NCBI RefSeq assembly: GCF_001905095.1
Contig: NZ_LWLS01000072.1
Location: forward strand, 248,001-312,000
Direction: 5' to 3'
Origin: Micromonospora sp. CB01531
Lineage (GTDB): Bacteria; Actinomycetota; Actinomycetes; Mycobacteriales; Micromonosporaceae
Length of the DNA: 64,000 nt
In this document: piece after piece, positions 646-15,099 of the stretch
Layout: every line of letters starts with the position of its first letter
Position numbering within the stretch: position 1 is the stretch's first letter
Notes under the pieces: generated by a model
What the model was told of the DNA's origin: nothing
Seen by the model: only the letters and a program-made list of their open reading frames with translations
Database searches by the model: none
Translations under genes and position numbers: made by a program

Positions 646-1416
646 TCATCGGGACGGGACGGCGGGTCGGGAGGTGGTGGCGGTGGTCCGCACCGCCTTG
701 ACGATGGCGGGGATGGAGCCGACCAGCAGGACCAGCGCCCAGACCGCCGCCACCACGGCGAAGACCAGCGCGCCGAGGTCGTCGGTGATGCTGACCAGGA
801 TCCCCGGCACCAGCCGGTGCAGGAACACCAGCACCACCGTGCAGACCAACGTGGTCAGTGCCAGCAGCACCAGGCCCTTGTTCTGCAGGAAGCGCGGTTG
901 GGCGAGCAGCAGCAGGCCGGCCCAGACCAGTTTGAGCAGCAGCACCAGGCCGAGCAGCACGGCCGCGTCGCCCACCGGGAAGAACCCCCACACCGCCAGG
1001 TACGCCAGCGTGCCGAACGGCGCCGCCAGGAACAGCGACACCATCACGGTCAGCTCGACGAAGGCCACGATCAGCAGGACCACCGAGACGATCAGCAGGA
1101 CGATCCCGAAGATCAGGGTGGCCACCCCCTGCAGCCGGCCCTGGATCCGGTCCGGCACCACCAGGCTCAGGCTGAACAGCCCGGTGGTCCAGAGCGCCAC
1201 CACGTCGATCAGCGCCAGGTAGCCGGTGCCCCGGCCGGCGGGCTCGGTGACCGTCCCGACGTCGCCGAGGTCCACGCCCAACTGCCCGGCGCTGTCCCGC
1301 AGCGCGCCGCCCGCGTCCCCGCCGCCGGCGAGCAGCGCCGCCCCCAGCTCCAGCCCCACCACCAGCGCCACCGCGAGCAGCGCCAGCAGCAGGAACGGTT
1401 TGCGCAGCTCACCCAT
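646..1416 (-). CDS. polytopic membrane protein, last gene of the injection-system operon
   Basis: A 256-residue protein with about six or seven hydrophobic segments (near residues 7-30, 70-90, 98-122, 125-150, 150-170, 178-200 and 212-238). The stretch of about 40 residues after the first segment is polar and Gly/Asp-rich. No enzymatic motif was found and I do not recognise the family. It follows the exported protein at 1459-1935 by 42 bases on the same strand, so it is probably the distal gene of the contractile injection operon. Its start is preceded by a purine-rich GGAGGGAGG stretch, a strong ribosome binding site. A role in membrane docking or pore formation is possible from context only. 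Confidence 0.75.
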   Translation of the reverse strand: MGELRKPFLLLALLAVALVVGLELGAALLAGGGDAGGALRDSAGQLGVDLGDVGTVTEPAGRGTGYLALIDVVALWTTGLFSLSLVVPDRIQGRLQGVATLIFGIVLLIVSVVLLIVAFVELTVMVSLFLAAPFGTLAYLAVWGFFPVGDAAVLLGLVLLLKLVWAGLLLLAQPRFLQNKGLVLLALTTLVCTVVLVFLHRLVPGILVSITDDLGALVFAVVAAVWALVLLVGSIPAIVKAVRTTATTSRPAVPSR

Positions 1417-1458
1417 GACGTGCCTCCCTCCCTGGCGCGACCCCGGCCGTCCGTCCGA

Positions 1459-1935
1459 TCAGGACCTGGCGACGGTGACCGTGCATCCGCCACCTCCCGG
1501 GCAGCTCAGGGCGACCTCGGTAGCCCGGTCGACGGCCACCTTCGCCACCGCCGTGCCGTCGTCACCCGGGCTCACCTCGTCGCGGACGGTGACCTCGGCG
1601 TCCCCCGGCGCGGGCGCCGACACCTCGAACGACGCCGGGCTGCGCAGCACCAGGGTGCGCAGGCCGCCCGGGTCGGCGACCCGCAGCAGGCAGCCGGTGC
1701 GGAAGGTGACCACCGCGCCGTCGGGGGACGTGGTCGGCGGCGCGGCGGGCGGCGCGCAGGCGACGGTGACCGTGGCCGGGTCGACTGTGGCGGTGCCGCC
1801 GCCCAGCCCGCTCAGCCAGCCCGGCCGGGCGGCCGGGTCCCCCCGGTCGTGCCGGCCCCCGCCGACCGCGATCAGGTAGAGCGCCACCAGCAGCCCGGCC
1901 AGCGCCGCCAGCAGCACCTTCTGCCGCCCCCTCAT
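1459..1935 (-). CDS. membrane-anchored or secreted small protein of the injection-system operon
   Basis: A 158-residue protein starting [20 protein letters not shown]: a positively charged start and a hydrophobic helix, typical of a signal anchor. A Gly/Pro-rich stretch follows, then a beta-rich domain of about 100 residues with two or three cysteines (VACAPP, TGCLLRV, LSCPGGGGC) that could form a disulphide. A longer in-frame ORF starts at 2037, inside the upstream gene. I chose the ATG at 1935 because GGAG stands 7 bases before it and the signal helix then starts at residue 1. The family is not recognised. Context suggests an extracytoplasmic accessory of the injection system. Confidence 0.7.
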   Translation of the reverse strand: MRGRQKVLLAALAGLLVALYLIAVGGGRHDRGDPAARPGWLSGLGGGTATVDPATVTVACAPPAAPPTTSPDGAVVTFRTGCLLRVADPGGLRTLVLRSPASFEVSAPAPGDAEVTVRDEVSPGDDGTAVAKVAVDRATEVALSCPGGGGCTVTVARS

Positions 1936-2000
1936 GGCCGATCTCCGCTTCGCTCCGACCCGCCCTGAGGGGCGCTCCGTCGGATGATTTGCTCGCTCAT
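1932..2000 (-). CDS. 22-codon bridging mini-ORF between two injection-system genes
   Basis: This ORF ([20 protein letters not shown], then Arg-Pro-stop) starts at an ATG whose last bases form the stop of the upstream gene (ATGA at 2000-1997). It ends in a TGA that overlaps the ATG of the next gene (ATGA at 1935-1932). The DNA contains GAGCGAAGCGGAG, reminiscent of short intergenic repeats of Micromonosporaceae (from memory, not checked). It is either a genuine micropeptide or, more likely, a translational coupler that carries ribosomes from one gene to the next. Too short for homology arguments. Confidence 0.35.
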
Positions 2001-2920
2001 GGCTGGATGAGCTGGCTGAACCGGAGCTGGTCGACACCGGCGAAGTACCGGTCGGTGCCCTGCGTCTTGCTCACCGCCACCAGGGTGACCTGGTGGGTGC
2101 CCTTGCTCAGGGTGAGCGTGCCGACGTCGATCCAGTCGGTCTTCACCACGGTCGGGCTGAAGCCGAAGAAGGTGTCGCCGACCTGCCGGCCGTCCACCAG
2201 GAAGATGGTGTTGGCGTAGTCGAACGAGGTGGTGCGCACGGTGGCGAAGCGCCAGGTCCCGTCGACCGGCAGGTCCACCGTGACGGTCACCCGGTCGCCG
2301 ACCGTCCGACCCTGGAAGAACAGCTGGGCGTCGCCCGACCAGGTGACGAGGCAGCAGTTCTTCTGCTCGACCACCGTCGCCGCCACCGGGCCCGCCGACT
2401 GGACCACCGCGTCCGGCACCAGGCTCTCCGCCTCCAGGGTCACCTCCTGTGCCCGGGGCGGCGGAGGCGGCGGGTCACCGCCGCGGGTCACCAGCCAGCC
2501 GACCACCCCGGCCACCACCAGCACCAGCGCGGCCGCTGCCGCAAGCCATGGCCACAGCGGGCGCTTCGGCGGTACGGCGGCCCGCACGTCGTAGGTCACC
2601 CGACCGCTGGAGCGGGAACTCTCCTCGGGTGCGGTGTTCGCCGAGTACGCGAAGCCGGTCATGTCGTAGCGCCGGGGCGGGGTGCCGGGCGGCACGGTGA
2701 GCCGGACCAGGAAGGAGACCGAGCCCTGCCCGGGCACCACCCGCTGCGGCTCGGCGACGGTGAACCAGGCGCGCTGGCTGCCCTCGCCGGGCGCCACGTC
2801 GAAGACCACGGTGTCCGGTGCCGTGCCCGGGTTGGAGACGGTGAAGGTGAGCTCGCCGCTGTTGCGGGCGTCCAGGGTGAACTGCTCGGCGGCGGCGACG
2901 ACCGCCCATTCGGTGGTCAT
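1997..2920 (-). CDS. CIS-associated single-pass membrane protein with Ig-like and carbohydrate-binding-like domains (CisA-like architecture)
   Basis: The 307 residues divide into three parts. Residues 1-115 form an Ig-like beta-sandwich ([50 protein letters not shown]). One transmembrane helix follows ([20 protein letters not shown], near 125-145) with a Pro-rich tail. The C-terminal 145 residues look like a CBM6/CBM35-type galactose-binding-like domain ([43 protein letters not shown]). The gene overlaps the tail-protein-I gene by ATGA. The layout (inner domain, one helix, outer lectin-like domain) resembles CisA, the protein reported to link Streptomyces CIS particles to the membrane. Orthology is inference. 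The outer domain could bind cell-wall glycans. Confidence 0.75.
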
Positions 2921-3477
2921 GACGGCTCCTCTGGGGACGGCACGGACGGCGGGGACGGGACGGCGATGACGATCTCGGCGGTGACGATCTCGGCGGTGAC
3001 CGCGGCCGGTTTCTCCGCCTCGACGATGCGGGTGATCACGGCGAGCTGGTCGGCGGCGGCCGGCGGCACCCGGACCACCACGTGGAACGGCTGGTCCGCC
3101 GGCTCCTCGAGCAGGAAGCCGCTCACTCCGGTGGCCAGTTCCAGCGCGGTGCGCATCCCGTACGGGGTGCCCCGCCAGCGGGCCAGCAGCGCGCCGTGCG
3201 CGACGAGGTCCCGTAGCCGGCCCACCGGCAGCGGCAGTGGCGCGTCGGCCCGGGGCGCGGCGATCACGTGGTCCATCGCCACCCAGCGGGTCAGGTACGC
3301 GACGAAGCCGTCCCGGGTCCGGTACGGCGCGAAGAGTGCGTCGACGTCGGCGAGCACCGCCTCGTCCGGGGCGTGCAACGCCTCCATCACGTCCAGCAGC
3401 GCGCCCAGCACGCTGCCCGGCCCGGCGGCCCGCTGGTACGCGGCGGGCAGCAGCCGCTCAATCGCCGCTCGGCGCAT
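2917..3477 (-). CDS. phage tail protein I-like baseplate protein
   Basis: A 186-residue protein starting [20 protein letters not shown]. It contains [20 protein letters not shown] and [20 protein letters not shown], matching the tail-protein-I family (P2 gpI-like, TIGR02242 type) found in contractile injection systems. The middle carries the usual [19 protein letters not shown] motif. The C-terminus is Pro/Ser-rich. The start overlaps the end of the baseplate-J gene by 20 bases, and the stop overlaps the next gene by ATGA. Its job is expected to be in baseplate wedge assembly, next to the J-like protein. The family is fairly clear; its structural position is inferred. Confidence 0.85.
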
Positions 3478-6154
3478 CCTGCCGCACCACCTCGATGTCG
3501 TGCTCGCCGGAGCAGAGCAGCCAGGTTCCGGGCACGGTGACCACGTCGGCGGTGGCCTGGTTGGCGCTGGCCGTCCAGTCGGCCGCGTCGCCGCTGCGGT
3601 ACACCCCGCGCTCCCCGCCGGCGAGGATCAGCCGGGCGGCGCCATCAGCGCCGGCGGACGGCACGGTGGCGGCGATCGCGTCGACCGGGACGAATCGGGT
3701 CCGGTCCCGCAGTGGCAGCCCGCAGTTGACCATGACCGGCTGCCACTGCGGCTGGGCGGCGAGGGTGTCCAGCCGGACCACCCCGCCGCTCTGCGTGGCG
3801 GCGACCGCCAGGGTGCCGCTGAACGCCAGGTCCCGGCAGGTGCCGCCGATCCAGCCGGCCTGCACGGCCTGCCACTTGACGTCCGACTCGAACAGCCGGG
3901 TGCGGTGGCAGCCCTGGCCGGGCTTCCTCGGGTCCGGCTCGCCGGCCCCGCACCACAGCAGGGTCGCCGGGCCGTCGTACTGCACCGCGAGGACCCGGTT
4001 GTCCACGTTGGCCAGGCCCACGTGGGCGAAGGTGCCGGGGCGGCCGGCCGCGGTGGACAGGTAGACGCCGAAACCGGCCTGGGCGGCCACCGCCACCCCC
4101 GGGGCGCCCCGTTCGGAGACGAACGCGCGGACCGCGTAGAAGCCGCGGTCGGCGTCGGCGGGGTCGACCAGGATCTGCAGCGGCACCGCCCCGGGCAGCA
4201 GGGAGACCTCGTACAGGCCGGCGTCGGTGGCGAGCAGCAGCGCACCCGCGCCGTCCCGGTCGATCCAGGCCAGGTCCTGCACCCGGGAGTCCAGGTCGGT
4301 CAGCAGGGTCCAGGTCTCGCCGAGGTCGGTGCTCAGGCGGACCCGGGAACCGCCGGAGTCGCGGGCGGTGACCACGGCGACCGAGCCGGCCCGGGGCACG
4401 ATGCCGGGGCGTACCGGGGCGGGGGCGGGAACCACCCGGACCACGGTCTCGGCGTCGAAGCGGCCGGCCGGCTCCCAGCCGGCGCCGGCGTTGGTGGAGC
4501 GGAACAGCACCGGGCCGCGGCCCGCGTACCAGGTGCCGGGCTGGTACTGGTCGACGGCGACGGTCCGGACCTGCGCGTCGGGCGCCTCGTCGACCACGAA
4601 CCGGACCGACTCGACGTACCGCACGCCCGGCTCGGCGTGCTCCAGCATCCGGTACACGTTGGACGCCCGCAGCGGCTCACCGAACACCCAGCCGGTCGGG
4701 TTGAGCGGGGTGGGCAGCGGGCTGAGCGTCTGGTGCAGCCGGTCGTGGATGCGGCGGCGGACCGCGTCGACGTCCTCCTCCCGGCGGACCACCACCCGGG
4801 CTCGGATCGACACCGCCTTGTAGCGGGCCCAGCCGGCCCGGACCGCGGTGCCCAGGGCCCGCCGCCGGTCCAGGTCGGCCTCCACCCGGCGGCGGGCCTC
4901 CTCCACCTCGTGCTCGCGCAGCACGTCCACCGGCAGCCGGCCGCCGGGGCGGGCCTGCTCCGGCACGTACGGCACCAGCACCACCTCGACCTCGCCGGGG
5001 CGGGCGAAGCTGTAGACGGCCGCCCGGGTGAACGCGCGGGCCCGGGCCACCGCCCCGGAGCCGGCGGCGAGGATCTCGTAGTCGCGGGCGGTGACCGCGC
5101 GCTGCTGGGCGAAGAACTCGTACGGCCCGCGGGTCAGTGCCGACTCCAGCGACTCCAGGTCCCGGCCCCCGCCGGCCGGCTCGGGGTTGTCCACCCGCAG
5201 CCCCGGCAGCGGGTCGCGCAGGCTGGTCAGCGTCCCCGCGGCGACGTTCCCGGCCGGCCCGCCGCCGCACCGGTACCAGAGTCGGATCTGCCGTCCGGCC
5301 GGCGGCACCGCCGCCACGGTCACCAGGCCGCGCGGGGCCCGTCCCGCCGCGCCGGGATCGCCGCCGGCCGGGCCGCCGTCGGATGCCGGGCCGGGCGCCC
5401 CCTCGACGCCCGGCCCGGTCTCCGGCCCGGCCGGCGGGCGCAGGTCCAGCGCGGGGGCGAAGGTGACCACCCCGGAGGCGCGGTCGACCAGGTAGACCTT
5501 GGCCTGCGGGCCGGTGCCGGCGAAGCTGTCCACCGGCCGCCAGATCTCGTACGTGCGTCCCTCGTGCTCCCGGGCGGCCGCGCCCAGCTCCACCGAGCCT
5601 GCCGGCACCTCCACCCCGAGCAGCAGGTCCAGCGCCTCGGCGGTCCGGGTCAGCGGTGCCCGGGCCGCCCGGAACACCTGCCCGGCCTGGCCGGTGCCGA
5701 CGCCGAGCAGTTCCGCCTCGACCGGCTCGCAGTGGTGCATGCGTACGGTCACCTCGGTCTCCCCCTCGGGGAGCAGGGCCGGCTCGGTGCTGACGAAGAC
5801 GATCGGCCGGGGGTCGGCGCCGCGGGCGGCGGCGACCCGGGTGCCGGCCGGGACGCGGACCGTGCCCTGGTCCGGGCCGGTCCGGCTGAACCGGACGTCC
5901 GCCCAGGCGGCCGTGGGCGGGTGCCGGGTCACGCCGAGCAGGTTGAGGAACGCGACGTACGCCTTCTCCGGCAACTGGTTCAGCCGGTAGATCATCACCT
6001 CGGTGAGGTACGCGAACGCCTCCAGCAGCGCCATGCCCGGGTCGTGCGCGGAGAGGTCCGTCCAGTCCGGGCAGGACCGGTGGATCCGTTCCCGCGCCTC
6101 GGTGACCAGGTCGAGGAAGGCGCGGTCGTCGAGGTGCGGCACGGGCAGCGTCAT
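3458..6154 (-). CDS. baseplate J-like wedge protein fused to a C-terminal beta-propeller
   Basis: An 898-residue protein. The N-terminal half carries baseplate-assembly J-like features: MTLPVPHLDDRAFLDLVTEA, DWTDLSAHDPGMALLEAFAY, RLNQLPEKAYVAFLNLLGV and, near residues 350-460, VTARDYEILAAGSGAVARAR. From about residue 480 to the end the sequence changes to repeated BNR/sialidase-type blades (FRSTNAGAGWEP, LSTDLGETWTL, GVYRSGDAADW), indicating a beta-propeller. The ATG at 6154 overlaps the stop of the gp25 gene (ATGA); a longer frame starts at 6265 inside that gene and was rejected. The fused propeller may serve as a fibre-like receptor or scaffold domain. The Pro/Gly/Ala-rich segment near residues 225-290 is probably a flexible insertion. 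Confidence 0.88.
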   Translation of the reverse strand: MTLPVPHLDDRAFLDLVTEARERIHRSCPDWTDLSAHDPGMALLEAFAYLTEVMIYRLNQLPEKAYVAFLNLLGVTRHPPTAAWADVRFSRTGPDQGTVRVPAGTRVAAARGADPRPIVFVSTEPALLPEGETEVTVRMHHCEPVEAELLGVGTGQAGQVFRAARAPLTRTAEALDLLLGVEVPAGSVELGAAAREHEGRTYEIWRPVDSFAGTGPQAKVYLVDRASGVVTFAPALDLRPPAGPETGPGVEGAPGPASDGGPAGGDPGAAGRAPRGLVTVAAVPPAGRQIRLWYRCGGGPAGNVAAGTLTSLRDPLPGLRVDNPEPAGGGRDLESLESALTRGPYEFFAQQRAVTARDYEILAAGSGAVARARAFTRAAVYSFARPGEVEVVLVPYVPEQARPGGRLPVDVLREHEVEEARRRVEADLDRRRALGTAVRAGWARYKAVSIRARVVVRREEDVDAVRRRIHDRLHQTLSPLPTPLNPTGWVFGEPLRASNVYRMLEHAEPGVRYVESVRFVVDEAPDAQVRTVAVDQYQPGTWYAGRGPVLFRSTNAGAGWEPAGRFDAETVVRVVPAPAPVRPGIVPRAGSVAVVTARDSGGSRVRLSTDLGETWTLLTDLDSRVQDLAWIDRDGAGALLLATDAGLYEVSLLPGAVPLQILVDPADADRGFYAVRAFVSERGAPGVAVAAQAGFGVYLSTAAGRPGTFAHVGLANVDNRVLAVQYDGPATLLWCGAGEPDPRKPGQGCHRTRLFESDVKWQAVQAGWIGGTCRDLAFSGTLAVAATQSGGVVRLDTLAAQPQWQPVMVNCGLPLRDRTRFVPVDAIAATVPSAGADGAARLILAGGERGVYRSGDAADWTASANQATADVVTVPGTWLLCSGEHDIEVVRQDAPSGD

Positions 6155-6582
6155 GACGTTCCCTCCTCGCCGTCGTCGGCGGGCAGCAGGTCGACGGAGA
6201 AGACGAGCTGGCCGGGGGAGAGGCTGGCCCGGACCCGGTAGTCCAGCCGGATCACCAGCCGCCACGGGGCGTCCGGGTCGGGGCCGGCGTCCACGTCGAT
6301 CACCTCGACCCGGGGCTCCCAGCGCCGGATCGCCTGCCGCACGTAGTGGATGGCCAGGCCGGCGGTGGTGTCGTCGTTGGGTGCGAAGACCAGCCGGTGC
6401 AGCCGGGAGCCGTACCCGGGGCGCATCAGCCGCTCGCCCGGCGTGGTCGACAGCAGCAGGTACAGCGCCTGGCGGACCGTCTCGTCGCCCTCGGTCATGG
6501 CGAGCCCGCCGGCGGCGGTCAACGCGAGGCCGCCGGTGCGGCCCGCGTCGAAGCCGGCGCCGACGAAGCGGAAGGCCCTCAT
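6151..6582 (-). CDS. gp25-like baseplate wedge protein
   Basis: A 143-residue protein of the T4 gp25/'lysozyme-like' baseplate family. The central GDETVRQALYLLLSTTPGER plus LMRPGYGSRLHRLVFAPND block is the family signature. It is followed by AIHYVRQAIRRWEPRVEV and a short beta-rich end. In contractile systems this protein joins the wedge to the sheath and helps set off contraction. The length fits the family. Start and stop both overlap neighbours by ATGA (PAAR-like gene before, baseplate-J gene after), so translation is probably coupled. The N-terminal extension of about 25 residues (MRAFRFVGAGFDAGRTGG) precedes the conserved domain. Confidence 0.92.
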   Translation of the reverse strand: MRAFRFVGAGFDAGRTGGLALTAAGGLAMTEGDETVRQALYLLLSTTPGERLMRPGYGSRLHRLVFAPNDDTTAGLAIHYVRQAIRRWEPRVEVIDVDAGPDPDAPWRLVIRLDYRVRASLSPGQLVFSVDLLPADDGEEGTS

Positions 6583-8488: not shown

Positions 8489-8607
8489 GCCGCACCACCC
8501 CTCGCGTCGTCGCGTTCCCTCGGGGCGTGGCGTCCGGCCGGGCCGGCGAGCCCGGGTGCGGAAACGGCGCGGCGTTCGTTCGTTCCGGCGGGCTGCGGTG
8601 CGGTCAC
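8485..8607 (-). CDS. 40-codon bridging ORF between the LysM tube protein and the spike
   Basis: The ORF (MTAPQPAGTNERRAVSAPGL to ARGGAA) begins with a GTG overlapping the stop of the LysM/tube gene (GTGA at 8607-8604). It ends with a TGA overlapping the GTG start of the spike gene (GTGA at 8488-8485). Its Arg/Ala/Gly/Pro-rich sequence has no recognisable fold. Both overlaps are exact, so a ribosome can step through from one structural gene to the next. In Afp/PVC clusters a small protein (Afp6) lies nearby, but I see no sequence resemblance. Either a disordered small component or a translation coupler. Confidence 0.4.
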   Translation of the reverse strand: MTAPQPAGTNERRAVSAPGLAGPAGRHAPRERDDARGGAA

Positions 8608-9362
8608 GGCGTGGTCCCTCCCGTCCCGCCGTCGGTCGGCGTCGCGACCGTCGGGGTGGCCGGCGGCACGGCCAGCGCCGCGCCGGCCGGCACGGTCAGC
8701 GGGTCGCTGATCCGGTTGTGCTCGGCGAGCAGCCGCCAGCGCAGCGGCGACCCGAGCGCGTCGTGGGCGAGCAGGTCGAAGCGCACTCCGGACCAGCCCG
8801 GCTCGGCCGCGCCGTCCGCCGCGGCGACCACCGCCGACCCGGGCGGCAACGGGGTGCTCGCCGCGGCGAGCTCCTCCTCGAAGCCCGCCTGGGCCGCCTC
8901 GGAGGACTCGGCCACCCGGACCAGCTTCAACCGCAGCCAGGAGCGGCGGGGCGTGCCGGTGAGGGCGAACGCGTCGAAGCGTTCCGCGATCGCCACGATG
9001 ACTCCGGGCACGTTCCAGGTCTTGCCCCACACCAGCCGCACCAGCGGGGGTCGCAGCCAGCCGTGCTCGGTGGCCGAGTTCTCCGCCAGCATCCACAGCG
9101 GACGGGTGAGCGTGCGGACGTCCTCGGGGCGTACCTGGGACTCGACGAGGTCGGTGTCGAAGAGCAGGTCCAGCACCAGCTCGGTGCGCCCGCCGCCGGT
9201 GAACAGCAGCGGGTCGTCGGCCAGGCCGGCACCGGTGAGCCGGCCGTCGGCGGTGCCCCGCGGGCGTACCCCGGCCAGCCGGGCGACCTGCACGGTCTCC
9301 GGGTTGAGCAGGCAGTCCACCCGGGCGCCGGACTCGTCCACGAGGAAGGCCACGCGTTCCAT
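8604..9362 (-). CDS. LysM-containing tube-baseplate adaptor (Afp7/CIS tube-protein type)
   Basis: A 252-residue protein. The N-terminal part (MERVAFLVDESGARVDCLLN, GGRTELVLDLLFDTDLVESQ, VRTLTRPLWMLAEN, PPLVRLVWGKTWNVPGVI, FALTGTPRRSWLRLKLV) has the CIS tube-protein N-terminal pattern. The C-terminal part (RFDLLAHDALGSPLRWRLLA, then LTVPAGAALAVPP) is a LysM-like repeat. In injection systems this protein connects the inner tube to the VgrG hub. The ATG at 9362 overlaps the stop of the disordered protein gene (ATGA). A longer open frame begins at 9614 but lies wholly inside that upstream gene. Confidence 0.88.
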   Translation of the reverse strand: MERVAFLVDESGARVDCLLNPETVQVARLAGVRPRGTADGRLTGAGLADDPLLFTGGGRTELVLDLLFDTDLVESQVRPEDVRTLTRPLWMLAENSATEHGWLRPPLVRLVWGKTWNVPGVIVAIAERFDAFALTGTPRRSWLRLKLVRVAESSEAAQAGFEEELAAASTPLPPGSAVVAAADGAAEPGWSGVRFDLLAHDALGSPLRWRLLAEHNRISDPLTVPAGAALAVPPATPTVATPTDGGTGGTTP

Positions 9363-10870
9363 CAGGAACCTGCCTGTTCCCGGTCCAGCCGGCGCAGCCG
9401 CGCGGCGTCGACCGTGCTGGCCGCCGGCAGCCACAGCTCCCGGTCGTCGGGCAGCGTCGGCCACGGGTCCCGCCGGCCCCGGCCATCGGGTACGGCGCCG
9501 GGGGCCCCGGCGGGGGGTGCGCCCCGGGTCTCGTCGGGCAGCGCCGGCCACGTCCCGGCGGCGGTGCGCGGCGGCCGTTGCCGGGCGGCGGACGCCGCGG
9601 CCCGCTCGCTCCACTCCGCAGCGGCCACCGCCGGTCCGCTCGCCGCACCGGAGCCGTCGGCCCGCACTGCCGTCCGGCCCGAGCCGCCGTTCGAGTGCAT
9701 CTGTTGTCCCCCCAGCGCCGACAGACGTATCCGAAGGCCCGCGGCAGGATCGGCGCGGCCCACGCCGAGCGGTCCACCGTCGCGCGGTGGCGGTCCGGCA
9801 TCAGGCGCATTCCCGTCGGTCCCCCGGTCCGCCCGGGACGCGGGCCCGTCGCGGTACCCGGCAACAGTCAGGCCGTCACCGTGGCCGGGGCACCCGGTGA
9901 TCGTCGGGGGCCCGGCGCTCTGGCTGGGCTCGGTGCTCAGGCTGGACCAGGTCGGGGTGGTGCGCTCGCCGGGCCCGGTCCGGGTGGTGCGCTCGCCCGG
10001 GCGGGTGCCACGTACCGTGGCGGGTTGCTCGCCCGGTCCGGAGGCACGGCTGGTCCCGGCGGTGGCGCCTGACCCCCGCTCGCCAGTCGTCCACTCGCCG
10101 CGGTCCGGGGAGCCGGTGGGCGCCGGATCGGACCGGATACCCGAGGCCGTCCCAGCGGTGTCGCCGTGGTGGCCGAAGGCGGACAACCCCTGCTGCCCGG
10201 CGGTCTCGGCGCGGCCCTGCGAGCCACCGGCGGGAGCGAGCCGTTCCCCGTCATCGCGCTGGCCGGACGCCGTGCCCAGGTCCGACCGGACCGGCCGGTC
10301 CGATCCGGCCGTCGAGACCGCGTCGGGGCGCCTCCACCGGCGCCGAACGTCGCGCCCGGACCGCACCGGCCGCCGCCACCCGCCCCTAGTCCCGACCACG
10401 GTCCGGTCCCCCCGGCGCCCCGACCCACCGTCCCACCCGCCCGCTCCGGGCGCCCCGTCCGCACCCGCCCCGCCCTCCCGCCCGTCGATCAAGGGGTTCG
10501 CGTCGACCGACGCTTCGGATCCGACCGAAACTCCTTGATCAACAGCGGGGAGGTCGAGAAGGGGGAGATCGGCCGGGGAGAGGTCGTGGAGGAGACCGGG
10601 GGCGTGGGCGGCGACGAGGCGCAGCCAGTGCTCGGGGGGCTCGCCGGGGCGGCGGAGCGCGGGTTGGTCCACCGCGGCCCAGGCTGCGGGCCGGTCGGCG
10701 GTCGGCGCGGCGAGCCCCTCGGCAGCGGGGGCGGCGTGCCGTTCGGCAGCGGGGGAGGCGAGCCGGCGGGTCGGGGTGGCGAGGCGGTCGGGGGGCGGGG
10801 CGGAGAGGCGGTCGGCCGCTACGCGCAGCGCCCGGGCCAGCCAGTCACGGGGTCGTCGGGGCGGCCGCAC
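9362..10870 (-). CDS. large disordered linker protein of the injection-system operon
   Basis: A 502-residue protein with a GTG start. Residues 1-110 are partly ordered (RDWLARALRVAADRL, PPEHWLRLVAAHAPGLLHDL). Residues 115-400 are low-complexity Gly/Arg/Thr/Pro/Ser. The C-terminal 90 residues contain two short similar motifs (TWPALPDE, DPWPTLPDD) and end WLPAASTVDAARLRRLDREQ. It sits between the tube gene (26-base overlap) and the LysM adaptor gene (ATGA overlap), where Afp6-like genes lie in other clusters. Length and disorder could allow a scaffold, chaperone or length-setting role, but nothing in the sequence proves any of these. The central part contains a palindromic repeat at 10484-10543 read in frame. 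Confidence 0.75.
   Translation of the reverse strand: MRPPRRPRDWLARALRVAADRLSAPPPDRLATPTRRLASPAAERHAAPAAEGLAAPTADRPAAWAAVDQPALRRPGEPPEHWLRLVAAHAPGLLHDLSPADLPLLDLPAVDQGVSVGSEASVDANPLIDGREGGAGADGAPGAGGWDGGSGRRGDRTVVGTRGGWRRPVRSGRDVRRRWRRPDAVSTAGSDRPVRSDLGTASGQRDDGERLAPAGGSQGRAETAGQQGLSAFGHHGDTAGTASGIRSDPAPTGSPDRGEWTTGERGSGATAGTSRASGPGEQPATVRGTRPGERTTRTGPGERTTPTWSSLSTEPSQSAGPPTITGCPGHGDGLTVAGYRDGPASRADRGTDGNAPDAGPPPRDGGPLGVGRADPAAGLRIRLSALGGQQMHSNGGSGRTAVRADGSGAASGPAVAAAEWSERAAASAARQRPPRTAAGTWPALPDETRGAPPAGAPGAVPDGRGRRDPWPTLPDDRELWLPAASTVDAARLRRLDREQAGS
10484..10543. repeat. palindromic TTGATCAAGG-type repeat inside a coding region
   Basis: The left arm GTCGATCAAGGGGTTCG (10484-10500) is matched by an inverted right arm whose complement reads GTTGATCAAGGAGTTTCG (10526-10543), with about three mismatches and a 25-base centre that itself contains GTCGACCGAC. 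On the minus strand it is translated in frame within the disordered protein (AVDQGVSVGSEASVDANPLI). Such TGATCA-centred palindromes resemble dispersed intergenic repeats of Micromonosporaceae; that comparison is from memory. It looks like an inserted mobile-type palindrome tolerated by a disordered segment. Confidence 0.6.
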
Positions 10871-11327
10871 TGCCGGACTCCAGTTCCAGTCCCTCGTACG
10901 CCAGGGTCAGCGCCTCGATGGCGATCTCCTGGGCGAGGGTGTTCAGGTGGGCGCCCCGCCACCGGGTGGGCCACGCGTTGATCATGTTCCAGCGCAGTAC
11001 CTCGGCGGTGCCGGCCGGGTCGAGCAGCACCACCGAGACGTTGCGCCGGCTCACCGTCCCCTTCGCCGCCGCGTTCACCCAGTCCCACAGCTCCCGCGAC
11101 GAGGTGAGCCCGAAGCGGAGGGTGACCGGGGCGTACTCGACCTGCCCGGGGACGGCCCGGATCCGCTCGTTGCCGGCCTCCCGGTACGCCAGCGACGGGA
11201 TGTTCACGTCGAAGCCGCTGACCTCGGTGAAGTGCCCGTTGGTGATCCCGTTGATCAGCAGCTTGAAGTGGTACGCCCGGTAGGGGTCGACGGGGGCGCC
11301 CGGCTGCGGGGTGGCCGTGGTCGGCAT
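10845..11327 (-). CDS. inner tube protein (gp19/Hcp-like) of the contractile injection system
   Basis: A 160-residue protein of the T4-like gp19 tail-tube family: YRAYHFKLLINGITNGHFTE, VSGFDVNIPSLAYREAGNER, VTLRFGLTSSRELWDWVNAA, RRNVSVVLLDPAGTAEVLRW and IAIEALTLAYEGLELE are all family landmarks. Length is normal for a tube subunit. It forms stacked hexameric rings inside the sheath and carries cargo in the lumen. It lies one base after the sheath stop codon. Only one tube gene is visible here, whereas many Afp-type clusters encode two or more. Confidence 0.95.
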   Translation of the reverse strand: MPTTATPQPGAPVDPYRAYHFKLLINGITNGHFTEVSGFDVNIPSLAYREAGNERIRAVPGQVEYAPVTLRFGLTSSRELWDWVNAAAKGTVSRRNVSVVLLDPAGTAEVLRWNMINAWPTRWRGAHLNTLAQEIAIEALTLAYEGLELESGSAAAPTTP

Positions 11328-11328
11328 G

Positions 11329-12546
11329 TCAGCCTCCGATCGTCTCGGTCTCGGTGCCGCCGGCCCACTGGCTCAGCTTGAACACCACGAACTCCGCGGG
11401 CTTGACCACCGCGATGCCGATGTGCGCGACGACCATGCCGGCGTCGCGGACGTCGGCCGGGTTGGTCTCTTCGTCGCACTTGACGAAGAACGCCTCCTCC
11501 GGCGTACGCCCGAGCAGCGCGCCGTCGCGCCAGACCCGGGTGAGGAACGCGCCGATGTCCCGCCGGATCGAGCGCCAGAGTGTGTAGTCGTTCGGCTCGA
11601 AGACCATCCACCGGGTGCCGTTGGCGATGGCCTGCTCGATGGCGATGGAGAGCCGCCGGACGTTGAGGTAGCGCCACTCGCTGGCCTCGGCGGCGAGCGT
11701 ACGGGCGCCCCAGAGCCGGATGCCCTCGCCGGCGAAGTAGCGGATCACGTTGACGCCCTTGGGGTTGAGCACGTCGTGCTCGGGGCGGGTGACCAGGCAG
11801 GCCAGGTCGACGGCGCCGCGTACCGGCTCGTTGGCCGGGGCCTTGTGCACGCCGCGCAGCGCGTCGGTGCGGGCCCAGATGCCGGCCACGTGCCCGCTCG
11901 GCGGGGTGAGCACGAGCTCGCCGCTGAGCGGGTCGCGTACCCGGATCCACGGGAAGTAGAAGGTGGCGAAGTCCGACTGCCGGGGCCGGTGCGCGCCCGG
12001 GCCGTCGTCGTCGGCGGGTTTCGGCGGGCCGTCGGTGGGCTTGCCGGGCGGCTTGCCCGGCGTGGCGACCCGGGTCAGCGCGGACACGTCGTCCACGTCC
12101 GGCGGCGGGTCGCAGATCGCCACCATGGTGCGCAGCCGCTCCGCCATGCTGATCAGTGCGTCGTGGGACACCGGGTCGTGGTAGCCGGGGGCGGCGAGGA
12201 TGGAGATCTCGTCGATGGCCTCCAGCAGTTGCAGACCGCTGCGCCGCCCGCCGGTGCCGGTGAGCTGGCCGCCCTCGCCGACGTTGACCACCCAGCAGCG
12301 GGTACCGCCGTTGTCGAGGAAGCCGAACACCGCCCGGGCGAGGTCCGTGCTCGCCAGGTCCTCGCCGTCGGCGTACAGCCGGAGGAACTCCGACCAGCTG
12401 TTCACCGCGAGCGCCTGGTCGACGTGGGCGGTGCGGTTCGGCGCGACCCCGACGAAGGCGGCGGTGCTGGTGCCGACCGGGCCGATCGGGCGGGCACCAC
12501 TGGGGACCTCCTCGACGTAGATGCCGGGGGAGAAGTAGGTGGGCAT
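11329..12546 (-). CDS. contractile tail sheath protein
   Basis: A 405-residue sheath protein starting MPTYFSPGIYVEEVPSGARP and continuing PVGTSTAAFVGVAPNR, the hallmark N-terminal linker strand of contractile sheaths. The middle has EAIDEISILAAPGYHD and the C-terminal domain has RRDIGAFLTRVWRDGALLGR, EEAFFVKCDEETNP and the terminal strand PAEFVVFKLSQWAGGTE. The first and last strands form the interlocking mesh that drives contraction. A Pro/Lys-rich insertion (GKPPGKPTDGPPKPADDDGP) lies near residues 172-191. ATG start with a GGAGG motif 6 bases upstream. It is a single sheath gene; some clusters carry two or three. Confidence 0.96.
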   Translation of the reverse strand: MPTYFSPGIYVEEVPSGARPIGPVGTSTAAFVGVAPNRTAHVDQALAVNSWSEFLRLYADGEDLASTDLARAVFGFLDNGGTRCWVVNVGEGGQLTGTGGRRSGLQLLEAIDEISILAAPGYHDPVSHDALISMAERLRTMVAICDPPPDVDDVSALTRVATPGKPPGKPTDGPPKPADDDGPGAHRPRQSDFATFYFPWIRVRDPLSGELVLTPPSGHVAGIWARTDALRGVHKAPANEPVRGAVDLACLVTRPEHDVLNPKGVNVIRYFAGEGIRLWGARTLAAEASEWRYLNVRRLSIAIEQAIANGTRWMVFEPNDYTLWRSIRRDIGAFLTRVWRDGALLGRTPEEAFFVKCDEETNPADVRDAGMVVAHIGIAVVKPAEFVVFKLSQWAGGTETETIGG

Positions 12547-12568: not shown

Positions 12569-13249
12569 TCAGTCGGGAGCGCAGACGATGACGAGGTCGG
12601 GGTCGCCGGGATCGAGGTCGGCGGTGAGGGTGCGGCCCCGGCCGATCAGGCGGACCCGGACCGGCCGGCCGGGGGCGTCGGGGTCGTGCGGGACACCGAC
12701 CAGCCGGAACCGGCCGGCGTGGTCGGTCTGCGTGGCGTACGGGGTGCCGACCACCTCGACCCGCATGGCGGCGAGCGGCTGCCGCTCCGGCCCGACCACC
12801 TGGCCGTCGAGGGTGAGCATGTCCAGCTGGCGCAGCCGCAGCGGGTGCCGCACGGGCGGTGCGGGCGGCCGCGGCCGGACGATCTGCGCGGGCACGTCGA
12901 CCAGCAGCGCCGGCCGGGGCGCCACGCCGAAGGCCCGCCACAGGGCGGGGTCGCCGGCGGTCAGCACCACCTCCGGCGTGCCGGCCGTCGCGGCGGCGGC
13001 GAGCACCCGGTCCAGCGCGGGGAGCGCGGCCAGCCCGGCGCCGCTGACCAGCAGCCGGACCACGAACCGGTACGGCTCGCGGGCCCCGCCGCTGCCCACG
13101 GTCTGCTGTGCCGGCCGCAGCTCCAGCGGCCAGACGGTCAGCCCGTCCGCCGGGTCGTCGCGGGGCGGGCCGACCGGGACGGGGTCGCCCGCCGCCCCGG
13201 TCAGCCAGGCCGCGAGGTCCGCGACGGCCGCCTCGATCGCGCCGGTCAT
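12569..13249 (-). CDS. Pvc16/DUF4255-like protein with carboxypeptidase-regulatory-like C-terminal domain
   Basis: A 226-residue protein directly upstream of the sheath gene (22-base gap). The N-terminal 140 residues (MTGAIEAAVADLAAWLTGAA, YRFVVRLLVSGAGLAALPAL, VVLTAGDPALWRAFGVAPRP) resemble the Pvc16 N-terminal (DUF4255) domain of tail terminator or cap proteins, though weakly. Residues about 150-226 (LDMLTLDGQVVGPERQPLAA, MRVEVVGTPYATQTDHAGRF, RLVGVP) are a carboxypeptidase regulatory-like beta-sandwich. By position it could cap the sheath-tube at the distal end. The ATG at 13249 overlaps the stop of the HEDVH membrane protein gene. The N-terminal family assignment needs a profile search. 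Confidence 0.65.
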   Translation of the reverse strand: MTGAIEAAVADLAAWLTGAAGDPVPVGPPRDDPADGLTVWPLELRPAQQTVGSGGAREPYRFVVRLLVSGAGLAALPALDRVLAAAATAGTPEVVLTAGDPALWRAFGVAPRPALLVDVPAQIVRPRPPAPPVRHPLRLRQLDMLTLDGQVVGPERQPLAAMRVEVVGTPYATQTDHAGRFRLVGVPHDPDAPGRPVRVRLIGRGRTLTADLDPGDPDLVIVCAPD

Positions 13250-13854
13250 CGCGGCGGGGTCCCCTGGATCCGGTACGCGATGGCCTCGTTCCACACGTGC
13301 GGGTAGACGCCGATCTCGAAGTACCGGGTGAACCGGTTGATCGGCGCGTTGGTGTGGTCGTGCCAGAGCAGCCACACCGGAGCGATGGTGAACAGCGCGT
13401 AGTTGAGCACCACCAGCGGCAGGTAGAGCGGGCCGAGCAGCCGGGCCTGCAGGATGTGCACGTCCTCGTGCCGCTGGATGCCCGGGCTGGACCCGGCGCA
13501 GACGGTGCCGATGGTGGTGGCGTACCGGGGCGAGACCCCCTCGACCACGTTGACCCGGCCGCTGGCGGCGGAGACCACCCGGTCGAGCTGGTGCCCGAAG
13601 ACCAGGTGCAGGGCCAGGTAGACCGCCCCGACCACGGTGTTGAGCAGGCTCCAGGTGTGGTCGACCACGAAGAGGAAGACCCCCTTCGGGTCCGCCCCGT
13701 AGCTGCCGGCGGCGGCGACCGCCCAGCCGAAGGGCGCGCCGACGAGCAGTCCCACCACCGCGCCGATCACCAGGCCGAGGGTGCCGCCGGCCCACTGGCC
13801 GAGCAGGGCGCCGAGGACGATGTGGACGGCGGCGCTGACGATGCCGAAGACCAT
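13246..13854 (-). CDS. membrane protein with HEDVH zinc-peptidase-like motif in the injection-system operon
   Basis: A 202-residue protein. A Gly-rich hydrophobic region (residues 1-50, two helices) and a further helix (68-88) are followed by GIQRHEDVHILQARLLGPLY at 125-144, then a hydrophobic stretch 142-163. H129-E130-x-x-H133 fits the HExxH zinc motif, and the surroundings recall small 'HEYGHYxQ' membrane proteins from other bacteria. A third ligand is not identified (later His at HDH and PHVWNE are candidates). The gene overlaps the next by ATGA and follows the 113-residue membrane protein by 14 bases. The longer frame starting at 14091 is rejected because ATG 13854 has a GGAGG site (GAAGGAGGTGGCC). 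Peptidase activity is inference. Confidence 0.75.
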   Translation of the reverse strand: MVFGIVSAAVHIVLGALLGQWAGGTLGLVIGAVVGLLVGAPFGWAVAAAGSYGADPKGVFLFVVDHTWSLLNTVVGAVYLALHLVFGHQLDRVVSAASGRVNVVEGVSPRYATTIGTVCAGSSPGIQRHEDVHILQARLLGPLYLPLVVLNYALFTIAPVWLLWHDHTNAPINRFTRYFEIGVYPHVWNEAIAYRIQGTPPR

Positions 13855-13868
13855 CGGGGCCACCTCCT

Positions 13869-14210
13869 TCAGACCCACGAGCGGATGTAGCGGGGCTCGC
13901 GTCCCTGCGCGAGCTGGGTCGGCGACGCGCTCGTCGCCTGCCGGTTGCCGGGCGGCAGCTGGTTGACGCCGAGCGCGGCGGAGAAGATGACCAGCCCGTT
14001 GAAGAACGCGACGATCCACTTCTCCGGGCCGGCATCGGCGAACGCCGCGGCGACGTACGACAGCGCGAGGGCGATGCCCAGCGCGATCCATTTGCGTGCC
14101 TTGTCGCCGCCCGGGCCGATCAGACCGCCGATGACGTTGGCGGCCAGCAGGGTGGCGGCGCTGGCACCGGTCAGGGTGCCCAGGGCGGCAAAGGTGAAGA
14201 GATCGTTCAC
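13869..14210 (-). CDS. small membrane protein, holin-like in shape
   Basis: A 113-residue protein with three hydrophobic helices (about residues 5-30, 41-61 and 66-82) and a polar C-terminal tail (LPPGNRQATSASPTQLAQGR). GTG start with a strong AAGGGAG site 6 bases upstream. Size and helix number resemble a holin or other small phage-type membrane protein, but no family motif proves this. It is the second gene of the operon and lies 14 bases before the HEDVH protein. A role in membrane placement or release of the injection particle is conceivable and is inference only. Confidence 0.7.
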   Translation of the reverse strand: MNDLFTFAALGTLTGASAATLLAANVIGGLIGPGGDKARKWIALGIALALSYVAAAFADAGPEKWIVAFFNGLVIFSAALGVNQLPPGNRQATSASPTQLAQGREPRYIRSWV

Positions 14211-14313
14211 GGCGATCTCCCTTCGGATGGTGCGGTGGTGCGGGTCGGGGTGGGTGGTGCGGCGGCCGGGTCCGTCCGGGCCGGGGCCGCCCGGGTGGCG
14301 GTGTCGCGCCGGA

Positions 14314-15099
14314 TCAGACCGGCCCCGGATGGTCGACCGGGGGCGCCGGCGCGGGGGTGGTGGCGGTGGGGGCGGCGGCCGGGCCGCGGGTGCGGCGGAG
14401 CAGGAGTACGACGGCCCCGGCGACCAGCAGCAGGACGACCACCCCGCCGACGATCAGGAGCCAGGGGAAGCCGCCGCCGGAGACCGGCTCGGCGGCGCCG
14501 GTGGTCGAGGGGCTCGCGGGCGCCTCCGCCTCGGCGACCAGCTCCGCGGGTTTGGGCTGGTTGGCGTCCACCTTCCAGGTCACCGACCGGCCGGTGACCG
14601 TGCCGTTGGAGGTGAGCACCCGGCCCGGGAAGGTCACCGATATCTCGAACGACATCAACCGCACGAACAGCTGCCGATTCCGTGGATCCCGTTCGGGGAT
14701 CTTCCCGGCGTATTTCTCCGGGTCCAGCGGAAACGAGAAGCGGTAGCGGTCGCCGGTGCGGACCAGTTTCACGCTGTCGCTGGTGAATTGCGACAGCGGC
14801 TTTTTCCGGTACACGACCTGCACGCCGTAGAACCGGGCGTCCTCGTAGCGGCTCTCGTCGCCGGCGGGAAGCGTGGGGAGCTGCCGGCGCATGTCGGTGA
14901 AGGCCGCCTCGACGTCCGGGTTCCGGTCCCTGAGCAGGGATTTGTCGGCGGTCACCAGGAGTTGGCCGGTGACCGTGTCGTCCGCGTTCACGGTCAGCCC
15001 GAGGTTGAGCTGCATGCAGCCGCTCAACGCCGCCACGAGGGCGAGACACACCGCGAGGCGGAATGCTTGGCCGCGGTGGAGTCTCCTATTCATGGACAC
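14314..15099 (-). CDS. LppM-like (DUF3153) lipoprotein with C-terminal membrane anchor
   Basis: A 261-residue protein with a lipoprotein signal: LAVCLALVAALSGCMQLNLG, with lipobox LSGC and Cys at about 28. The domain that follows (LTVNADDTVTGQLLVTADKS, VTWKVDANQPKP) has the mycobacterial LppM pattern, which folds like a lipid-binding sandwich. A transmembrane helix lies near residues 214-235 (WLLIVGGVVVLLLVAGAVVL), followed by an Arg/Thr/Pro-rich cytoplasmic tail. The start is GTG 15099 or ATG 15093. It is the first gene of the minus-strand injection-system run, 103 bases before the next gene; whether it is cotranscribed is uncertain. The 254 bases upstream, up to the phosphotransferase gene, should hold the promoter. 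Confidence 0.82.
   Translation of the reverse strand: MSMNRRLHRGQAFRLAVCLALVAALSGCMQLNLGLTVNADDTVTGQLLVTADKSLLRDRNPDVEAAFTDMRRQLPTLPAGDESRYEDARFYGVQVVYRKKPLSQFTSDSVKLVRTGDRYRFSFPLDPEKYAGKIPERDPRNRQLFVRLMSFEISVTFPGRVLTSNGTVTGRSVTWKVDANQPKPAELVAEAEAPASPSTTGAAEPVSGGGFPWLLIVGGVVVLLLVAGAVVLLLRRTRGPAAAPTATTPAPAPPVDHPGPV

What the first reader, a model, noticed from the sequence alone, without database searches (positions are those of the whole stretch)
646..15099. Compact contractile injection system operon in an actinomycete
Sheath, tube, LysM adaptor, VgrG-like spike, PAAR-like tip, gp25, baseplate-J and tail-protein-I genes lie in one minus-strand run with no capsid, terminase, integrase or lysis genes. 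The run also holds several membrane proteins. This is a non-phage injection machine. The combination of structural genes with a HEDVH membrane protein, a lipoprotein and a lectin-like membrane protein at its ends looks like a membrane-docking module.
Basis: partly seen in the sequence, partly recalled or inferred. Interest (0 to 1): 0.75.

Follow-up and report, generated by a model that had tools for sequence, protein, structure and literature searches.

The report
Membrane-docked contractile injection system subtype
A soil actinomycete carries a very small phage-tail-like injection machine that comes with its own two-part membrane attachment, and the same set is found in very different bacteria, which suggests a way of mounting such needles on the cell membrane that I did not find described.

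Summary
Window 646-15099 is one minus-strand gene run encoding a phage-tail-like contractile injection system (CIS). No phage head, integrase or lysis gene was recognised in the run or in 10 flanking proteins.

It belongs to a distinct sheath clade found in 7 phyla and on plasmids. Markers: a short sheath (~405 aa); no Cis15-type AAA+ ATPase found (0 of 53 fetched loci); a beta-propeller on baseplate-J (55 of 56 compact loci, 0 of 27 others that have baseplate-J); and two membrane proteins. M (1997-2920), just after tail-protein-I, is Ig-like domain / one TM helix / glycan-binding-type domain: CBM35-like here, PASTA in 16 of 29 family members. O (646-1416) is a six-helix membrane protein. In 150 family genomes O occurs in exactly the 26 with this sheath and in none of the other 124.

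Most likely M and O dock the baseplate to the cytoplasmic membrane and cell wall. M sits and is built like Streptomyces CisA, without detectable sequence similarity. Docking is inferred, not shown.

The parts
646..1416 (-). O: membrane protein with about six TM helices, conserved marker of this CIS type
   Evidence: No Pfam/NCBIfam family at E 0.1. In 150 family genomes found in the same 26 that carry the compact sheath, 0 of 124 others; 2 of 394 class genomes, both compact. Model pLDDT 79.5; CDF/YiiP-like bundle Z 18.0, 207 aligned, 3.1 A, not backed by Foldseek E-values or sequence
1459..1935 (-). N: short protein with N-terminal TM helix and a probable extracytoplasmic part
   Evidence: found in 9 of 23 representative compact loci
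1997..2920 (-). M: bitopic protein, probably cytosolic Ig-like domain, TM ~123-145, CBM35-like outer domain (CisA-like position and topology)
   Evidence: 22 of 23 loci across phyla; AlphaFold2 mean pLDDT 90, pTM 0.50; outer domain vs MiXBM Z 18.9, CBM35 Z 13-14; PASTA in 16 of 29 family members; more K/R on the N side of the helix in 24 of 29
2917..3477 (-). Tail protein I (Cis12-like)
   Evidence: TIGR02242 E=5e-10, Tail_P2_I E=1.5e-5
3458..6154 (-). Baseplate J (Cis11-like) with C-terminal part of ~370 aa, probably a beta-propeller
   Evidence: TIGR02243 E=3.5e-81; glycosylhydrolase-type repeat family match over 636-793, E=1.5e-7; C-terminal profile in 55 of 56 compact loci, 0 of 27 non-compact loci that have the core
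6151..6582 (-). gp25-like sheath initiator (Cis9-like)
   Evidence: PF04965 E=5e-25
6579..6917 (-). Spike tip, PAAR-like (112 aa)
   Evidence: 112-113 aa in 20 of 20 family loci; counterpart in Paracoccus matches PAAR_motif E=0.007, below its cut-off
6917..8488 (-). VgrG-like spike (Cis8-like)
   Evidence: Phage_base_V E=1e-17, Phage_GPD E=3e-14
8604..9362 (-). Tube adaptor (Cis7-like)
   Evidence: CIS_tube PF19266 E=2e-11
9362..10870 (-). F: Pro/Gly/Ser-rich, probably disordered protein with short conserved motifs, in the cis6/tape-measure position
   Evidence: motifs in 31, 39 and 43 of 54 F proteins against 0.7, 0.5 and 0.9 expected on shuffling; motifs chosen after seeing the sequences
10845..11327 (-). 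Inner tube (gp19-like)
   Evidence: PF06841 E=5e-35; TIGR02241 E=2e-35, CIS5_fam E=6e-30
11329..12546 (-). Contractile sheath, 405 aa
   Evidence: PF04984 E=5e-16, PF17482 E=2e-15; own clade
12569..13249 (-). Cap / tail terminator (Pvc16-like) with carboxypeptidase-regulatory-like domain
   Evidence: Pvc16_N in 6 of 15 and CarboxypepD_reg in 13 of 15 family members
13246..13854 (-). HEDVH membrane protein (HExxH motif)
   Evidence: 9 of 9 same-genus loci and 1 of 11 other family loci
13869..14210 (-). Small two-TM protein
   Evidence: 9 of 9 same-genus loci, 0 of 11 other family loci; sub-threshold holin-like Pfam match, E=0.042
14314..15099 (-). LppM-domain lipoprotein
   Evidence: PF21946 E=7e-31; 9 of 9 same-genus loci and 1 of 11 others

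Best explanation
This is a minimal contractile injection system without a recognised AAA+ ATPase that is mounted on, or recruited to, the inner face of the cytoplasmic membrane by its own two-protein docking module. M is the link: its cytosolic Ig-like domain would bind the baseplate (tail-protein-I and/or the baseplate-J propeller), its helix crosses the membrane, and its outer glycan-binding-type domain (CBM-like here, PASTA elsewhere) holds or senses the cell wall. O, a six-helix membrane protein, would complete the membrane complex or form the exit site. On a trigger, such as wall damage or contact, the sheath contracts once and drives the tube outward through the cell's own envelope; without an AAA+ ATPase the sheath would not be recycled. 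Shown here by computation: gene content, co-occurrence, position, predicted folds and likely topology. Inferred: binding to the baseplate, docking, firing direction, trigger, target.
For: O occurs in exactly the 26 of 150 family genomes that carry this sheath and in 0 of 124 others; class level: O in 2 of 394 genomes, both with the compact sheath. M lies just after tail-protein-I and is present in 22 of 23 representative loci from Actinomycetota, Chloroflexota, Myxococcota, Pseudomonadota, Thermodesulfobacteriota and Fibrobacterota. The same gene order is annotated on Deinococcus, Paracoccus and Rhodovulum plasmids, with a 'PASTA domain-containing protein' right after or near the tail protein. 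M: confident model, Ig-like domain / TM / CBM35-like; PASTA in 16 of 29, Kelch in 1; more K/R on the N-terminal side of the helix in 24 of 29. The baseplate-J propeller is specific to this type. Precedents: CisA of S. coelicolor, bitopic and needed for contraction in the cell (PMC12237407, sections 6, 7 and 9 read), encoded downstream of cis11 and sco4243 (PMC10066040, passages); the 6-TM putative anchor that correlates with T6SS mode in haloarchaea (PMC11566945, passages).
Against: No experiment. No effector or immunity gene was recognised. M and O could be a sensor or an immunity factor rather than an anchor. The CDF-like fold of O rests on a model from 9 sequences: Foldseek E-values are not significant and sequence comparison is null. 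One representative locus (L126) lacks M. In the family sample two genomes carry an M match without an intact compact sheath and without O (G112, sheath in fragments; G114, weak match). In L084's genome O lies at the edge of another contig, so its neighbourhood is unknown. A six-helix protein and a bitopic protein do not by themselves show docking.
Confidence: 0.55

Rival explanations
1. A cytoplasmic free-floating CIS of the Streptomyces CISSc kind: particles float until stress, then M (a CisA analogue) recruits them to the membrane, where they kill the producing cell or release its contents as part of development; there is no standing T6SS-like complex and no neighbour is attacked.
For: CisA-type proteins of IId systems lie after tail-protein-I and share the plan cytosolic part / one TM / sugar-binding-like outer domain (zinc ribbons and an F5/8-type C or related domain in L165, L167, L169; PMC12237407). 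No fibre gene was recognised in the window. Many hosts are filamentous or developmental (Micromonospora, Catellatospora, Myxococcus, Ktedonobacter; names, life styles recalled).
Against: The compact type is also in hosts that I recall as unicellular, such as Nitrosomonas, Caulobacter and Deinococcus, where developmental self-killing is less obvious. O has no counterpart in the 11 canonical stretches and 7 downstream extensions examined. M is not similar in sequence to the CisA-type protein tested.
Confidence: 0.3
2. An extracellular CIS released by lysis, with M (or the baseplate-J propeller) acting as a receptor-binding part that inserts into or binds target envelopes.
For: Baseplate, cap and spike are of eCIS type; many eCIS have glycan-binding fibres downstream of Tail_P2_I or baseplate-J (PMC12923769, passages).
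Against: M has a conserved TM helix and O is a multi-helix membrane protein, poor candidates for a soluble particle. No DUF6519 (eBAP5) appears among Pfam matches of 29 M proteins at E 0.01. No AAA+ ATPase found, which Sarris et al. describe as always present (PMC4122934, passages).
Confidence: 0.1
3. A domesticated tailocin or decaying prophage tail without a function in injection.
For: Phage-derived tail genes; a small 2-TM gene with a sub-threshold holin-like match.
Against: Full-length sheath in 26 of 150 family genomes and the same gene order in 53 fetched loci; no lysis or head family above its cut-off in the proteins scanned; dedicated membrane partners; phage sheaths that cover at least 80% are only 23-24% identical.
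Confidence: 0.03

Closest known systems
CISSc / SLP of Streptomyces (eCIS subtype IId) with CisA
   Same: Sheath, tube, adaptor, VgrG, gp25, baseplate-J; a bitopic membrane protein with a sugar-binding-like outer domain after tail-protein-I; fibre and tape-measure genes reported absent (PMC12237407) and not recognised here
   Different: Separate sheath clade; longer sheaths (509-627 aa in 10 fetched canonical loci against ~405); a AAA+ ATPase near the canonical sheath (seen in 5 of 11 stretches, the others being cut); no propeller on baseplate-J, no O, no M homologue in the stretches examined
Haloarchaeal T6SS (Halogeometricum borinquense)
   Same: eCIS-type machine whose T6SS mode correlates with a clade-specific 6-TM membrane protein (PMC11566945, passages read)
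   Different: That protein has a ~150-residue cytoplasmic domain, which the O model does not show; homology not tested; no M-like gene is mentioned in the passages read
Streptomyces davawensis CIS (Tme group)
   Same: Sheath group said to span Actinobacteria, Chloroflexota and Proteobacteria; a peptidoglycan-binding protein at the cluster's end proposed to attach the particle to the envelope (PMC11126660, sections 6 and 12 and passages)
   Different: Defined by a >2000-aa DUF4157 effector Tme; no DUF4157 match in the window's genome; spacing of tube-initiator, spike and tip locus tags differs. Whether its sheath lies in the compact clade could not be tested
Thylakoid-anchored tCIS (Anabaena)
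   Same: Membrane-anchored CIS
   Different: Anchored by TM-bearing Cis13 and a Cis12 extension (PMC8894136, passages); the cyanobacterial sheaths fetched here fall in another clade
T6SS i-iii
   Same: Cell-anchored mode proposed
   Different: No ClpV-type AAA+ ATPase found; none of the 16 window proteins matched a TssJLM-type family

Membership tests
eCIS / PLTS (Afp/PVC-like) | AAA+ ATPase always in the cluster (PMC4122934) | tested here: not met
   0 of 53 compact loci with the own-genome CIS AAA query; of 47 non-compact named loci of the same scan 9 match over the AAA part and 6 only weakly elsewhere; none in the window plus 20 kb to its left (best E=0.49). Limits: about 10 kb each side for the other loci, one query; a short AAA gene of other look lies 1.1 kb upstream in the Deinococcus plasmid
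eCIS / PLTS (Afp/PVC-like) | sheath, gp19 tube, adaptor, VgrG, gp25, baseplate-J, Pvc16-type cap | tested here: met
   cap by 6 of 15 family members
eCIS with fibres (eBAP1-5) | fibre gene with an eBAP domain | tested here: inconclusive
   no DUF6519 (eBAP5) among Pfam matches of 29 M proteins at E 0.01; eBAP1-4 models are not held
CIS IId (CISSc) | sheath in the IId clade | tested here: not met
   window sheath in another clade; the 14-row clade with the Streptomyces-like loci has SH-aLRT 100.
CIS IId (CISSc) | CisA homologue | tested here: not met
   M HMM finds nothing at E 1 in 7 canonical downstream regions; M vs one CisA-type protein: BLASTP E 8, hhalign probability 0.8%. Position and topology agree
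Tme group (S. davawensis) | DUF4157 tape-measure-like effector | tested here: not met
   0 eCIS_core matches at E 0.01 in the whole genome
T6SS i-iii | TssJLM membrane complex and ClpV | tested here: not met
   no such family among matches of the 16 proteins; no ClpV-like AAA with the one query used
Haloarchaeal T6SS | 6-TM putative anchor homologous to Hbor_38620 | not tested
   that sequence was not obtained
CDF zinc transporters (for O) | sequence homology and conserved metal-site residues | tested here: not met
   hhalign probability 0.6%; no CDF among PDB sequence matches at E 10; no invariant His in 9 aligned O proteins, whereas the H and D of an HxxxD stretch are invariant in three own-genome CDF proteins. 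Fold resemblance Z 18
Tailocin / prophage | lysis, head or integrase genes nearby | tested here: not met
   none above cut-off among the 16 proteins of the run or 10 flanking proteins; not every flanking ORF was scanned; one sub-threshold holin-like match

The most novel reading that the evidence does not exclude
A cell-anchored, type-VI-like injection machine that uses neither TssJLM nor a recycling ATPase but its own M-O membrane complex, shared by monoderm and diderm bacteria of seven phyla and carried by plasmids: a further independent origin of the T6SS mode, with swappable wall-sensing domains (CBM, PASTA, Kelch) tuning what triggers firing.
Probability: 0.35. Interest if true: 0.85.

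Novelty: new variant of a known kind. Interest (0 to 1): 0.7.

Why it matters
How a CIS comes to be released, to kill its own cell or to be anchored like a T6SS is an open question; one published approach is to look for clade-specific membrane proteins (PMC11566945, passages). Here two such proteins co-occur with one sheath clade across monoderms and diderms, O without exception in the family sample, which makes the question directly testable by deleting M or O in a culturable host. Published surveys may have missed the type: one required at least ten core genes (PMC8213781, passage), and one set aside loci without recognised fibres (PMC12923769, passage); whether they did was not checked. M is a candidate link between cell-wall state and CIS firing.

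Tried and rejected
Prophage or tailocin: no head, lysis or integrase family above cut-off among the 16 proteins of the run or the 10 flanking proteins scanned. DUF4157 effector: none in the genome at E 0.01. M as an eBAP5 fibre: no DUF6519 match. O as a real zinc transporter: fold resemblance only. M as a CisA homologue: null. HEDVH protein and lipoprotein as core docking parts: mostly genus-limited. A plasmid search with O alone found one record (Deinococcus), although the O profile finds it in the Paracoccus and Rhodovulum plasmid stretches too, so single-sequence searches miss it. The sheath tree is a quick tree with long branches (L004, L157, L132, L126 and others) and two joins of long branches (L115 with L138, L156 with L126) flagged by the program; no test_one_clade was run. 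The 8 rows labelled 'other' inside the compact clade (L065, L072, L073, L074, L082, L091, L097, L132) are whole short contigs or stretches that end at a contig edge before all marker genes are reached. In one search one of them, L073, gave a weak M-profile match (E 6e-5) in its lipoprotein region; at E 1e-5 it drops out. M's N-terminal domain resembles WxLIP by VIA (Z 12.5, 109 aligned, 2.7 A) but was not modelled on its own. Absent from the VIA lists is no evidence of a new fold. No complex prediction was possible (single chains only).

Against my reading: the Deinococcus plasmid locus has an annotated 'AAA family ATPase' of about 670 bp roughly 1.1 kb upstream of the cap gene; I take it to belong to the neighbouring PIN/HTH genes but did not test this. 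G112 has M and a sheath in fragments but no O; G114 has a weak M match without this sheath. The genome-wide search missed O in L126's genome, although the locus profile finds it (E=3.8e-13), so that search can miss divergent copies. Two of the seven phyla (Thermodesulfobacteriota, Fibrobacterota) rest on metagenome-assembled genomes only, where contigs can be mis-binned.
Full report
What is there. Window 646-15099 (G000:C72:248646-263099; genus Micromonospora, judged from a named relative 92% identical in the sheath) holds 16 genes on the minus strand, 8 of 15 junctions overlapping: lipoprotein, 2-TM protein, HEDVH membrane protein, Pvc16-like cap, sheath, tube, disordered protein F, adaptor, VgrG-like spike, PAAR-like tip, gp25, baseplate-J with C-terminal propeller, tail-protein-I, bitopic protein M, TM protein N, six-helix protein O (profiles). 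Ten flanking proteins scanned are ordinary (GntR, HNH, HD, VTT, LacI, APH, NUDIX, FUSC, esterase, MFS). The genome has a second, AAA-containing CIS on another contig.

A distinct, widespread type. The sheath was searched in 150 genomes of the family; 82 have some match. Two groups stand apart: 26 genomes (the window's own included) with a near full-length match in one piece, the other 25 at 65-95% identity; and canonical-type matches that are weaker and mostly fall in two pieces (about 50% over the C-terminal part, often with a separate N-terminal piece). One further genome, G112, has the sheath in fragments. Loci were fetched from 20 of the 25 other genomes; all 20 share the core from cap to tail-protein-I, and M is seen in 19, the missing one being cut by the stretch end and found just outside it. 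By three marker genes (tip, adaptor, baseplate-J) 33 of these 80 and 20 of 20 family loci are compact, 53 in all. Four genomes were fetched twice (L048/L075, L050/L077, L051/L076, L052/L079), so 49 are distinct; in 53 of 53 the matched core genes lie on one strand in the same order. Three plasmid loci were added from annotated records: Deinococcus sp. AJ005, Paracoccus sp. MC1862, Rhodovulum sulfidophilum. Hosts cover Actinomycetota, Chloroflexota, Pseudomonadota, Myxococcota, Deinococcota and, from metagenome-assembled genomes only, Thermodesulfobacteriota and Fibrobacterota. In a quick tree of 100 sheaths (15 of 115 rows left out beforehand: one truncated, 14 close relatives or duplicates) the compact loci fall in one clade of 49 rows with SH-aLRT 97 (50 rows with 82, once the long-branched L132 is added), apart from the Streptomyces-type clade (14 rows, 100), a clade with the cyanobacterial loci (14 rows, 95) and one of Myxococcota, Planctomycetota and Spirochaetota (21 rows, 96). 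The non-compact rows inside the compact clade are contigs cut short.

No AAA+ ATPase found. The AAA protein of the own-genome canonical CIS used as query finds 0 of 53 compact loci; of the 47 non-compact named loci, 9 match over the AAA part (E 5.4e-43 or better) and 6 more show weak matches in the C-terminal region only. Nothing is found in the 64-kb window or the 20 kb to its left (best E 0.49). Sarris et al. 2014 state that PLTS clusters always hold this ATPase (PMC4122934, passages). Limits: one query, and stretches of about 10 kb either side, many shorter; as a control, the query finds it in only 5 of 11 canonical stretches of 17-20 kb, so absence in a single cut stretch means little and the weight lies in 0 of 53.

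Baseplate-J propeller. A profile of the C-terminal ~370 residues finds 55 of 56 compact loci (53 plus 3 plasmids; the exception, L088, ends at a contig edge inside the gene). Among 58 non-compact loci (8 of them cut-off members of the compact clade), 27 have the baseplate-J core and none of these 27 has the C-terminal part. It is also absent from 7 further canonical stretches that have the core. That it is a beta-propeller rests on a repeat-family match in the window protein, not on a model.

M. All-against-all comparison of ORFs in 23 representative loci (window plus 22) finds M in 22: about 115 N-terminal residues, one TM helix often preceded by a K-P-F-P-W-W-like stretch, then a variable part. 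Pfam on 29 M proteins: PASTA in 16, Kelch in 1, CBM_6 in 1 (E 0.0035), none relevant for the window's own outer domain. The window model (24 rows; mean pLDDT 90, pTM 0.50) shows a beta-sandwich, the helix at 123-145 and a second beta-sandwich. The outer domain matches MiXBM (Foldseek E 6e-10; VIA Z 18.9, 133 aligned, 2.0 A, 26% identity) and CBM35 modules (Z 13-14). K/R counts are higher on the N side of the helix in 24 of 29, equal in 2, and PASTA domains are known to be extracellular (recalled), so N-in/C-out is likely. Several loci carry tandem M paralogues (L081, L090, L092, L096). In the larger set the M profile is found in 52 of 56 compact loci, some of them cut, and in 0 of 58 non-compact ones.

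O. No Pfam or NCBIfam family at E 0.1. In the 150 family genomes O occurs in 26, the same 26 that carry the compact sheath, and in 0 of 124 others. M's N-terminal profile occurs in those 26 plus G112 and, weakly, G114. In the 394-genome class sample O occurs in 2, both compact. Relatedness inflates such counts, but the pairing holds across phyla: O is within the fetched stretch in 16 of 23 representatives. The O profile finds 27 of 56 compact loci within the stretches and 0 of 58 non-compact ones, and none in 7 further canonical stretches. The O model (9 rows, pLDDT 79.5, pTM 0.72) resembles the TM domain of CDF zinc transporters: ranks 1-32 of the VIA list are all CDF proteins, Z 18.0 falling to 7.3, then 6.5. 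Foldseek alone is not significant, profile-profile comparison with own-genome CDF proteins is null (probability 0.6%; its score of 19.3 is slightly above 20 of 20 column-shuffled controls, best 17.3), and O has no invariant histidine. I treat the fold as a lead and transport as unlikely.

F. Between tube and adaptor the compact loci have a Pro/Gly/Ser-rich protein, 171-679 aa as picked by my script in 53 loci plus the window (some picks may be in the wrong frame; 4 loci are duplicates), with short conserved motifs (PPEHWL-like in 31 of 54, W-P-x-L-P-like near the end in 39, E-Q at the C-terminus in 43; shuffles expect 0.7, 0.5 and 0.9). The motifs were chosen after looking, so the contrast is descriptive. 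Its position is that of cis6 or a tape measure; its role is unknown.

Mechanism. M sits where CisA sits, just after tail-protein-I, and has the same plan (cytosolic part, TM, outer glycan-binding-type domain). CisA is required for CISSc contraction in situ and is predicted to contact Cis11 (PMC12237407, sections 6, 7 and 9 read). CisA-type proteins in three canonical loci fetched here carry zinc ribbons and an F5/8-type C or related domain; the one compared, a 468-aa protein, shows no sequence similarity to M. So M works like CisA without being detectably related. O recalls the clade-specific 6-TM protein proposed as anchor of the haloarchaeal T6SS (PMC11566945, passages); homology was not tested. 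The simplest reading is that M and O dock the baseplate at the membrane and couple firing to the state of the wall. Shown: co-occurrence, position, predicted folds, likely topology. Inferred: contact with the baseplate, docking, direction, trigger, target.

Known or not. Searches of the held open-access library: 'contractile injection' + Micromonospora gives one paper, on Sle1-type effectors (abstract read); + PASTA domain none; 'contractile injection system' + beta-propeller + baseplate 4, the relevant one being the fibre catalogue PMC12923769 (passages), whose main text holds neither 'PASTA' nor 'transmembrane'; 'phage tail-like' + Micromonosporaceae 1 (PMC4122934 counts 12 Micromonosporaceae organisms with PLTS loci). 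Broader searches were seen as listings, with passages of PMC12210884, PMC8213781, PMC10066040 and PMC8894136; none of what I saw describes this set. The S. davawensis paper (PMC11126660) describes a CIS group of similarly mixed phyla defined by a >2000-aa DUF4157 effector; the window's genome has no DUF4157 match, but I could not place its sheath in my tree. Most subscription papers, including the dbeCIS survey as far as I could tell, are not in the library, so a prior description there is possible. I file this as a new variant of a known kind.

Noticed in passing
G000:C98:1-20000 (L004): A second, distant CIS cluster in the same genome, with AAA+ ATPase (L004:2747-5206 -) and a 987-aa sheath frame.
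   Followed up: partly
L155, L156, L157 (NZ_CP044987.1, NZ_CP067227.1, NZ_CP015419.1): Compact CIS loci on plasmids of Deinococcus, Paracoccus and Rhodovulum, which points to horizontal spread.
   Followed up: partly
L081, L090, L092, L096 downstream of tail-protein-I: Tandem paralogues of M with similar N-terminal domains and different outer parts, as if sensor domains were being swapped.
   Followed up: no
window 13246-13854: HEDVH (HExxH-type) membrane protein conserved in the genus; could be a membrane-embedded metalloprotease tied to this CIS.
   Followed up: no
window 9362-10870 and counterparts: A probably disordered protein with short motifs conserved across phyla in the cis6/tape-measure position; its variable middle differs strongly in length.
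   Followed up: partly
G112:C3:385364-396688: Apparently decayed compact locus: sheath in fragments, two M copies, no O found.
   Followed up: no
L155:17415-18086: A short annotated AAA family ATPase lies upstream of the cap gene in the Deinococcus plasmid, beside PIN and HTH genes.
   Followed up: no
L098, L105, L112: Non-compact Myxococcota-type loci carry a 1330-1438 aa frame before the adaptor, possibly a tape-measure-like effector.
   Followed up: no
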